Of a DNA stretch of 64,000 bases, positions 15,641-55,180 are shown in pieces. Both the position numbers and the translations under genes were made by a program. The notes under the pieces were generated by a model. The model did not search any database and was not told where the DNA came from. It saw only the letters and a program-made list of their open reading frames with translations. How positions within the stretch are numbered: the first letter of the stretch is position 1; the number at the start of each line of letters is the position of its first letter. Source of the stretch: Halomarina salina (GTDB lineage: Archaea > Halobacteriota > Halobacteria > Halobacteriales > Haloarculaceae); assembly GCF_023074835.1 (NCBI RefSeq), contig NZ_JALLGW010000001.1:620001-684000 (forward strand), written 5' to 3'.

Positions 15641-15737
15641 CGCCCGAGGATGCGTCGGCAGCGGCAAGAGCGTTTGGCACAGTTCCACACGAAACGGAGG
15701 AGGGTCGTCTCGCTCTACGTGGGGAAGGGAACACGGA

Positions 15738-15844
15738 GAGAGGGATTTGAACCACGGTCGCACGTGCTCGCTTCGCTGCGCGCGTGCTCCCTGATTCGAA
15801 ATCCACGGCCGTTTCACTCCTCGTGCAAGCACTCGGAGCAGAAA
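15738..15844 (-). repeat. tRNA-Lys 3'-end-capped repeat unit (~113 bases)
   Basis: Downstream of tRNA-Lys the T-arm sequence gagagggatttgaacc recurs exactly (15738-15753), 113 bases from the same sequence in the tRNA (15851-15866). Between the copies lie, in order, a hairpin around gctcgcttcgctgcgcg, an inverted T-arm-like gattcgaaatcc, and a GTTTC-hairpin-GAAAC element next to the tRNA. The same order is found in the unit downstream of tRNA-Ser. Confidence 0.65.
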
Positions 15845-15918
15845 CGGGCTGAGAGGGATTTGAACCCCCGGCCGTCTGGTTAAAAGCCAGACGCTCTCCC
15901 TAACTGAGCTATCAGCCC
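15845..15918 (-). tRNA. tRNA-Lys (anticodon TTT)
   Basis: The minus strand folds as a tRNA: acceptor GGGCTGA with TCAGCCC, D-arm GCTCAGTTAGGGAGAGC, anticodon stem TCTGG/CCAGA with loop CTTTTAA (anticodon TTT), T-arm GGGGGTTCAAATCCCTC. Discriminator G. CCA is not encoded. It carries lysine to AAA/AAG codons. It stands between the M20 deacylase and the surface glycoprotein gene. Confidence 0.95.
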
Positions 15919-17273: not shown

Positions 17274-17454
17274 ATCTGTGGCGACGAAAGCGCGGCGTAT
17301 ATCGGTTGCGTTCTCCTCGACGGGTGGCCGCGTGCGTCCGACACCGGTAGCAGCTGTTCGACGAGCAGTCAGACGACGGGATTCGAGAACTCGTGGCCGA
17401 CAGGAAGTGCAGCGACTACGAGGTGAACTGTGACCGTGCGAAACCGTTCGCGAG

Positions 17455-17530
17455 AGCCAAGGGCCGGATTCGAACCGGCGTGATCTCGCTCTGCAGGCGA
17501 GTACGTATGGCCAGACTCTGTCACCTTGGC
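17455..17530 (-). tRNA. tRNA-Cys (anticodon GCA)
   Basis: Acceptor GCCAAGG pairs with CCTTGGC; the anticodon stem CTCGC/GCGAG encloses CTGCAGA, giving anticodon GCA; T-arm GCCGGTTCGAATCCGGC. Discriminator T (U). It is the distal tRNA of the rRNA operon, the usual place in haloarchaea, but a strong hairpin with a T run separates it from 5S. Confidence 0.95.
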
Positions 17531-21105: not shown

Positions 21106-21177
21106 TGGACCCACTGGGATTCGAACCCAGGGCATCCTCCTTGCAAAGGAGGCACTCTCCCACTGAGCTATGGGCCC
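21106..21177 (-). tRNA. tRNA-Ala (anticodon TGC) in the 16S-23S spacer
   Basis: Acceptor GGGCCCA pairs with TGGGTCC, D-arm GCTCAGTGGGAGAGT, anticodon stem CCTCC/GGAGG around TTTGCAA (anticodon TGC), T-arm CTGGGTTCGAATCCCAG, discriminator A. tRNA-Ala in this spacer is standard for haloarchaeal rRNA operons. Confidence 0.97.
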
Positions 21178-54761: not shown

Positions 54762-54874
54762 CGCCGGGACAGGGATTTGGACCACGCCCGGACTGCTCGC
54801 TTCGCTGCGCGGTCCGGTCTACCTCAAATCCTTCGTTGCGTTTCCGCTGCTCGCGAGTTGCTCGCAGTGAGAAA
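54762..54874 (-). repeat. tRNA-Ser 3'-end-capped repeat unit, copy A (113 bases)
   Basis: Starts with cgccgggacagggatttgg (54762-54780), one mismatch from the 3' end of tRNA-Ser (55100-55118). Then, as in the tRNA-Lys unit, a hairpin with gctcgcttcgctgcgcg, an inverted T-arm piece ctcaaatcc, and a GTTTC-hairpin-GAAAC element. The next copy begins exactly 113 bases on. Confidence 0.65.
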
Positions 54875-55099
54875 CGCTGGGACAGGGATTTGAACCACAG
54901 TCGCTCCCGTTCGCTCGCTGTGCTCACGGCTCCGCCGTTCGCATTCGAGGTCGCGAGCGACCTCGCTTCTCTCACCTCCCGCTCCCTGATTCAAACCCCT
55001 GTTGTAGAGATTCGACTCCTCACGTCCGTTCTCGCCGAATCGTGCTGCGATTCGGCTGACAGTCGGAACGCTCAGCGTTCCGACGATGTCGTCAAAATA
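54875..55099 (-). repeat. tRNA-Ser 3'-end-capped repeat unit, copy B (225 bases)
   Basis: Starts with cgctgggacagggatttgaac (one mismatch from the tRNA-Ser 3' end). Inside are gctcgctgtgctcac hairpins, an inverted T-arm-like gattcaaacccc (near 54990), then further hairpins up to the tRNA. Its length is about twice 113, so it may be two diverged units. Confidence 0.55.
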
Positions 55100-55180
55100 C
55101 GCCGGGACAGGGATTTGAACCCTGGATCCCAGAGGGAACACGCTTTCCAGGCGTGCGCCTTACCACTCGGCCATCCCGGC
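55100..55180 (-). tRNA. tRNA-Ser (anticodon GGA)
   Basis: Acceptor GCCGGGA with TCCCGGC; D-arm GCCGAGTGGTAAGGC; anticodon stem CACGC/GCGTG around CTGGAAA (anticodon GGA); long variable arm TTCCCTCTGGGAT typical for serine; T-arm CAGGGTTCAAATCCCTG; discriminator G. It reads UCC/UCU codons. Two partial copies of its 3' end lie downstream. Confidence 0.95.

What the first reader, a model, noticed from the sequence alone, without database searches (positions are those of the whole stretch)
15732..15918. The same tRNA-capped unit beside tRNA-Lys, at the same 113-base spacing
Sixteen exact bases of the tRNA-Lys T-arm/acceptor region recur at 15738, exactly 113 bases from their place in the tRNA. 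The interior has the same order of parts as the unit near tRNA-Ser: a shared tgctcgcttcgctgcgcg word, an inverted T-arm piece, and GTTTC...GAAAC arms. Yet the cap matches tRNA-Lys, not tRNA-Ser. Two unrelated tRNAs with one unit architecture and spacing argue for a real element class whose end is rewritten to fit its host tRNA.
Basis: partly seen in the sequence, partly recalled or inferred. Interest (0 to 1): 0.7.

Follow-up and report, generated by a model that had tools for sequence, protein, structure and literature searches.

The report
tRNA-capped palindromic units of haloarchaea
Salt-loving archaea carry, just behind more than half of the tRNA genes examined, short gene-less DNA units that each end in a copy of that particular tRNA's tail and that come and go between species; they look like an overlooked class of miniature site-specific mobile DNA, though the enzyme that would move them is unknown.

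Summary
Behind tRNA-Lys lies a ~113-base unit: a hairpin (H1), an inverted copy of the T-arm, an inner palindrome (H2), and a cap that copies the tRNA 3' end. In this Halomarina genome 25 of 43 tRNA genes carry such units, each capped with its own tRNA's tail; none has one upstream. A covariance model finds them in 287 of 292 haloarchaeal genomes and in 0 of 124 other genomes of the phylum. The spacing of 113 is not special (median 120, IQR 105-135). The duplicated segment runs exactly from the T-loop GTTC to the mature tRNA end. Between two close Haloferax species, single tRNA-proximal units are cleanly present or absent. Arm mismatches are as often A.C as G.T (tRNA stems: 4 versus 113), so RNA-type selection was not detected. 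Best explanation: non-autonomous mini-elements inserted at tRNA 3' ends, probably moved in trans by a tRNA-end-specific tyrosine recombinase. Turnover is well supported; insertion and the enzyme are inferred. No prior description was found in Rfam or in the papers held.

The parts
15845..15918 (-). tRNA-Lys(TTT), intact host gene
   Evidence: ARAGORN; Rfam RF00005 71.4 bits
15806..15844 (-). Lys unit, H1: imperfect hairpin TTTC-T-GCTCC..GGAG-T-GAAAC directly after the tRNA 3' end; identical H1 follows tRNA-Lys(CTT) elsewhere in the genome
15795..15804 (-). Lys unit, inverted T-arm copy (GGATTTCGAA)
   Evidence: class-wide test
15754..15794 (-). Lys unit, H2 inner palindrome, type with GCGCAGCGAAGCGAGCACG
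15732..15753 (-). Lys unit, cap: copy of the tRNA-Lys 3' end from G53 (GTTCAAATCCCTCT...), 4 of 22 mismatches, decayed in the acceptor part
55100..55180 (-). tRNA-Ser(GGA), host gene of the sister locus
55000..55099 (-). Ser unit 1, H1 region (long, two hairpins)
54988..54999 (-). Ser unit 1, inverted T-arm copy
54897..54987 (-). Ser unit 1, H2 inner palindrome (expanded, 91 nt)
54875..54896 (-). Ser unit 1, cap (1 mismatch to tRNA-Ser)
54833..54874 (-). Ser unit 2, H1
54821..54832 (-). Ser unit 2, inverted T-arm copy
54784..54820 (-). Ser unit 2, H2 inner palindrome, same type as the Lys unit
54762..54783 (-). Ser unit 2, cap (1 mismatch to tRNA-Ser)

Best explanation
The 15732-15844 unit belongs to a haloarchaea-wide family of ~100-130 bp, gene-less DNA units lodged at tRNA gene 3' ends. 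Each is [H1 hairpin]-[inverted T-arm]-[H2 palindrome]-[copy of tRNA positions G53-N73]. Shown: the class, its tRNA-specific caps and inverted arms, sharp duplication borders, turnover one unit at a time next to an intact tRNA, and lack of an RNA-type selection signature in the arms. Inferred: they are non-autonomous site-specific mini-elements. One unit recombines into the tRNA between G53 and the mature end, supplies a new tRNA 3' end plus inverted arm, and displaces the old end, which becomes the cap; older units are pushed outward and decay. The likely agent is a trans-acting tyrosine recombinase of the kind whose att site is the tRNA 3' end (e.g. the Halobacteria-restricted SNJ2 family). 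Homologous or microhomology recombination between caps accounts for duplications and losses.
For: Own-cap copies downstream of 25/43 tRNA genes in the genome and upstream of 0; a methanogen control shows only whole tandem tRNAs. The duplicated segment is sharp: identity 0.31 at position -1, about 0.99 from GTTC on, 0.87 at the last base, then 0.59 and falling. Clean gain/loss of exactly one tRNA-proximal unit between two close Haloferax genomes: tRNA-Tyr (102 bp) and tRNA-Val(TAC) (112 bp), with the next unit shared. Proximal caps match the tRNA better than the second cap in 22 of 41 loci, worse in 6. In Haloferax tRNA-Glu the proximal cap carries the same allele as the tRNA in several species, while distal caps carry another. 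The inverted arm matches its own cap with <=2/10 mismatches in 158/194 units (shuffled 7/194), and permuting caps worsens the fit (2.13 vs 1.32). Where cap and tRNA T-arm differ, the inverted arm agrees with the tRNA 47 times and the cap 17 times, as the displaced-end model predicts. H2 is flipped exactly between its inverted arms in one Halomarina unit (L181). A ~1.2 kb integrase-remnant element sits between a unit cap and a ~10-nt tRNA-end copy in this genome, so caps can apparently serve as attB. Haloarchaeal integrases use tRNA 3' ends as att (13 bp for Humcor2, PMC7911831; SNJ2, PMC8371274), and SNJ2, HSTV2 and pR1SE integrases are restricted to Halobacteria, like the units.
Against: No recombinase has been linked to the units, and no excised circle was seen. 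A ~100 bp DNA circle is very stiff and an unusual substrate for a tyrosine recombinase. Integrated elements at tRNA-Glu cross over near the anticodon loop and duplicate >=45 nt, not 21. No unit pattern occurs in 2.9 million viral contigs. The 47:17 result and the proximal-cap polarity are also expected if copies simply decay independently. Clean presence/absence could be deletion by recombination between 22-bp caps instead of insertion; direction was not polarised. Each of the many tRNA specificities would need its own element lineage or a permissive enzyme.
Confidence: 0.42

Rival explanations
1. Host-recombination satellites: the units arose once (perhaps from an ancient integrated element) and now persist and spread only by homologous or microhomology recombination, gene conversion with the adjacent tRNA, and hitch-hiking on integrative elements that carry tRNA 3' halves; no dedicated enzyme acts on them.
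For: Tandem units with near-identical interiors (Haloferax tRNA-Glu L248; tRNA-Arg(TCG) here) look like unequal exchange. A 55-bp deletion between CTCCGTC repeats at tRNA-Arg(GCG) and a collapsed unit at tRNA-Glu(CTC). An element in G113 has a unit next to the tRNA-Glu it is integrated in, as if it carried it. H1 best matches are at the same tRNA in another genome 14 times versus 1.5 expected. The first 41 nt of H1 are identical at tRNA-Val(TAC) in Halomarina and Haloferax, which are different families.
Against: Does not explain how many different tRNA genes acquired the same architecture with their own inverted arm and cap, nor the sharp G53-N73 borders shared by all.
Confidence: 0.28
2. A functional RNA module: the tRNA primary transcript runs into the unit, whose H1 and H2 hairpins act in termination, 3' processing or tRNA regulation.
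For: Stems covary (192 double-change cells versus 63 expected). Tandem 5'-GA/GA-3' mismatches occur in 65/153 H1 hairpins on the tRNA strand and 3 on the other strand. Inner orientation is strongly biased, 143:2. Units occur in nearly every haloarchaeon.
Against: A.C mismatches are as common as G.T in the arms (43 vs 49) and in H1 (49 vs 48), against 4 vs 113 in tRNA stems, also in units with near-perfect caps (23 vs 27). The covariation of the arms follows from copying different tRNAs. Where cap and tRNA differ, the inverted arm does not follow the cap. 18 of 43 tRNA genes here have no unit, and presence changes between close species. No Rfam family reaches its threshold in the unit.
Confidence: 0.15
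3. Ordinary scars of larger integrated elements (proviruses, plasmids): displaced tRNA ends left after internal deletion.
For: Archaeal tRNA genes are frequent integration sites (PMC8371274), and integrase genes lie beside some unit-bearing tRNAs.
Against: The interiors are uniform in order (H1, inverted arm, H2) and mostly 80-150 bp at many tRNAs. The integrases examined at tRNA-Glu duplicate >=45 nt. Random deletions would not leave a shared palindromic architecture.
Confidence: 0.1
4. Units serve the host as spare attachment sites that divert tRNA-end-specific integrases away from the tRNA gene.
For: In this genome an integrase-remnant element lies immediately after a unit cap, not after the tRNA.
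Against: Integration normally restores the tRNA, so protection has little obvious value; one example only; caps decay.
Confidence: 0.05

Closest known systems
Displaced tRNA 3' fragments (attR) of tyrosine-integrase elements, including SNJ2/pleolipovirus-type with short att at the tRNA end
   Same: Direct copy of the tRNA 3' end beside an intact tRNA; haloarchaea-specific integrase families; border at the mature tRNA end
   Different: No cargo or integrase in the ~80-150 bp interior; fixed palindromic architecture; inverted T-arm; tandem arrays; 25/43 tRNA genes in one genome
Integron cassettes / attC sites
   Same: Short units in tandem, each ending in an imperfect palindromic recombination-like site; strand-biased hairpins; best-matching units nearest the constant site
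   Different: No ORF, no integron integrase seen, core GTTCRAA instead of GTTRRRY, the constant site is a tRNA gene
MITEs
   Same: Short, gene-less, palindromic, dispersed, direct duplication at the target
   Different: 21-nt duplication tied to tRNA positions 53-73; no common terminal inverted repeats seen; almost only behind tRNA genes
REP/BIME palindromes
   Same: Dispersed extragenic imperfect palindromes, often paired
   Different: Arms are tRNA-specific, location restricted to tRNA 3' ends; RAYT partner not looked for

Membership tests
attR/scar of a tyrosine-integrase genomic island | Direct copy of tRNA 3' segment next to a regenerated tRNA | tested here: met
attR/scar of a tyrosine-integrase genomic island | Cargo with an integrase gene between the two copies | tested here: not met
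   Interior of 80-150 bp, too short for an integrase
attR/scar of a tyrosine-integrase genomic island | Same duplicated length as the integrases found at these tRNAs | tested here: not met
   >=45 nt for G267, G113 and G152 elements against 21-22 nt; a ~10-nt copy for the own-genome remnant
Integron cassette / attC | GTTRRRY core sites and inverse core | tested here: not met
   Cap core is GTTCRAA, being the tRNA T-loop
Integron cassette / attC | Adjacent IntI integrase and attI | not tested
   No systematic IntI search was made
MITE | Terminal inverted repeats of an autonomous transposon | tested here: inconclusive
   Internal inverted arms found, no common terminal repeats seen by eye in 33 units; no autonomous partner identified
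MITE | Target-site duplication | tested here: inconclusive
   Sharp 21-nt duplication, but it may be an att core rather than a staggered-cut duplication
Casposon-type tRNA-end insertion | 14-15 bp duplication and Cas1 integrase | tested here: not met
   Duplication is 21 nt; Cas1 not looked for; the 14-15 bp figure is from general knowledge
Structured non-coding RNA | Selection for pairing that tolerates G-U but not A-C | tested here: not met
   against tRNA stems as positive control
Structured non-coding RNA | Match to a known RNA family | tested here: not met
   Only the tRNA itself over threshold
Non-autonomous tyrosine-recombinase mini-element | Precise excision or integration at the cap by a recombinase | not testable with these tools
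   Only comparative presence/absence available

The most novel reading that the evidence does not exclude
A new class of minimal mobile DNA: ~100 bp units consisting of nothing but a tRNA-end attachment site and two palindromes, targeted to many different tRNA genes in nearly every haloarchaeon, each taking on the identity of the tRNA it sits behind and accumulating in ordered arrays, moved in trans by an unidentified recombinase.
Probability: 0.35. Interest if true: 0.9.

Novelty: new variant of a known kind. Interest (0 to 1): 0.74.

Why it matters
The units sit behind 25 of 43 tRNA genes in this genome and turn up in nearly all of the haloarchaeal genomes searched, yet no description of them was found. 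If they are mobile, they would be among the smallest site-specific mobile elements, with specificity for almost any tRNA. They turn the general question of why tRNA 3' ends are hot spots into a directly testable one in genetically tractable Haloferax. They also supply attB-like copies that integrases seem to use, and may help move tRNA 3' ends between species.

Tried and rejected
Fixed 113 spacing: rejected. RNA structure under RNA-type selection: not supported. Reverse transcription of mature tRNA: unlikely, since caps lack CCA and start at G53 rather than after position 58 (inference). Simple integrase scars: disfavoured. Viral carriage: three pattern scans of viral contigs gave nothing. Rfam match: none. 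Strict helical-turn spacing of the arms: loop lengths cluster at 30-31, 40-43 and 51, but the sample is partly pattern-selected, so no claim is made. Literature searches for haloarchaeal tRNA-end repeats found only ordinary proviral att duplications. A first own-genome listing read minus-strand loci in the wrong orientation and was redone. Two calls with an invalid centre failed.

Full report
What is there. Downstream (minus strand) of tRNA-Lys(TTT) at 15845-15918 lies one unit, 15732-15844. Downstream of tRNA-Ser(GGA) at 55100-55180 lie two, ending at 54875 and 54762. The Lys and Ser stretches align far above 1000 dinucleotide shuffles, with or without caps.

It is a class. Searching the genome with either unit hits places next to many other tRNA genes. 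Scanning 43 tRNA genes for a copy of their own last 22 nt within 600 bases found it downstream in 25 and upstream in none. The 33 units have one order of parts: H1 hairpin, inverted T-arm, H2 palindrome, cap. A covariance model of H2 matches 287 of 292 haloarchaeal genomes, 75 of 76 genera. In a sample of the phylum it matches 22 of 24 haloarchaea and none of 124 other genomes. An exact pattern in 84,980 species genomes gave 54 stretches, all haloarchaeal. Of these, 53 sit behind a tRNA: 51 by ARAGORN coordinates, L190 behind an intron-containing tRNA-Arg, and L181, whose unit is in normal order but with H2 flipped between its arms. L174 is an orphan. That pattern includes T-arm letters, so it favours tRNA-like places; the own-cap test and the control below do not have that bias. 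In a methanogen of the same phylum the own-cap test finds only whole tandem tRNAs. Across 323 haloarchaeal tRNA loci in hand, 195 have a downstream own-cap copy and 14 an upstream one; part of this sample was chosen through unit hits, so the unbiased figure is the 25/43 above. Spacing is variable: median 120, IQR 105-135.

Anatomy. The duplicated segment is sharp. Identity to the tRNA is at background level just before G53, about 0.99 from GTTC on, 0.87 at the discriminator, and falls right after the mature end. The cap has no CCA. The inverted T-arm is specific to its tRNA. H1 and H2 vary widely in sequence but stay palindromic. H1 often has a tandem 5'-GA/GA-3' mismatch on the tRNA strand only, and H2 is oriented GAGCGA-like in 143 units and flipped in 2.

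DNA or RNA. The arms covary, but that is expected when both arms are copies of different tRNAs. In the arms G.T and A.C mismatches are equally frequent (49 and 43), whereas tRNA stems from the same loci have 113 and 4. The same holds for young units (27 and 23) and for H1 (48 and 49). Equal counts are expected from dsDNA-level function or from decay after copying, not from RNA selection. This lowers, but does not exclude, an RNA role: relaxed selection on decaying copies could hide it.

Turnover. In the same genus, orthologous tRNAs differ in number and interior of units. Between two close Haloferax genomes, the tRNA-proximal unit of tRNA-Tyr and of tRNA-Val(TAC) is present in one and absent in the other, with the next unit shared. 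Other differences are deletions or collapses (tRNA-Arg(GCG), tRNA-Glu(CTC)). Direction was not polarised, so insertion is not proven. Proximal caps are closer to the tRNA than the second caps, 22 to 6 with 13 ties. At Haloferax tRNA-Glu(TTC), 15 species carry 0-2 recognisable units (some only a truncated H1), and proximal caps follow the tRNA allele in several species while distal ones do not. Where cap and tRNA differ in the T-arm, the inverted arm agrees with the tRNA 47 times and with the cap 17 times. This fits an incoming unit that brings both a new tRNA end and the inverted arm and displaces the host's end as cap; independent decay would give a similar result.

Relation to integrases. 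Elements with tyrosine integrases (PF00589) sit beside some of these tRNAs. At Haloferax tRNA-Glu they cross over near the anticodon loop, duplicate >=45 nt and exchange tRNA 3' halves; in G113 a unit lies next to the tRNA inside the element's boundary. In this genome a ~1.2 kb integrase remnant lies between a unit cap of tRNA-Leu(TAG) and a short tRNA-end copy, so caps may act as attachment sites. SNJ2-type att sites are the tRNA 3' end (PMC8371274; a 13-bp case in PMC7911831), and these integrases are restricted to Halobacteria, as the units appear to be. These facts make a trans-acting integrase the leading candidate; none was tested directly.

Verdict. The class is real, very widespread in haloarchaea, and not described in Rfam or in the open-access papers searched (subscription literature was not available). 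The preferred explanation is a non-autonomous, site-specific mini-element (0.42). The main rival is passive spread by host recombination and hitch-hiking (0.28).

Noticed in passing
L190 2570-2860 (minus); Haloferax L296, L328, L300, L290: A second unit type with a shorter cap (~14-15 nt, starting ATCCC or ACTCCC) and an interior of the opposite palindromic sense (TTCGTTCACT.., CTCGCTTCGCTC..), in tandem with the main type.
   Followed up: no
L411 279-1602, reverse complement (G000:C1:2499600-2501700): Integrase-remnant element of ~1.2 kb inserted after the cap of the first tRNA-Leu(TAG) unit, with a ~10-nt tRNA-end copy and another unit on its far side.
   Followed up: partly
L278, L279, L280, L281 (Haloferax tRNA-Glu): Integrated elements swap the tRNA-Glu 3' half including both T-stem strands, giving two compensated tRNA alleles among Haloferax species.
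   Followed up: partly
L247 (G238:C1:2546500-2552500): Dense array of a dozen or so tRNA genes on one strand, likely of viral or plasmid origin.
   Followed up: no
L181 4111-4180; L245 1957-2110: L181: H2 flipped exactly between its inverted arms.
   Followed up: partly
L174 1283-1340: Orphan H2 with T-arm-like inverted arms and no tRNA recognised within 2 kb.
   Followed up: no
window 17454-17530 and 21106-21177: tRNA-Cys and the tRNA-Ala(TGC) of the rRNA operon carry no unit; nor do their orthologues in the two congeners examined.
   Followed up: partly
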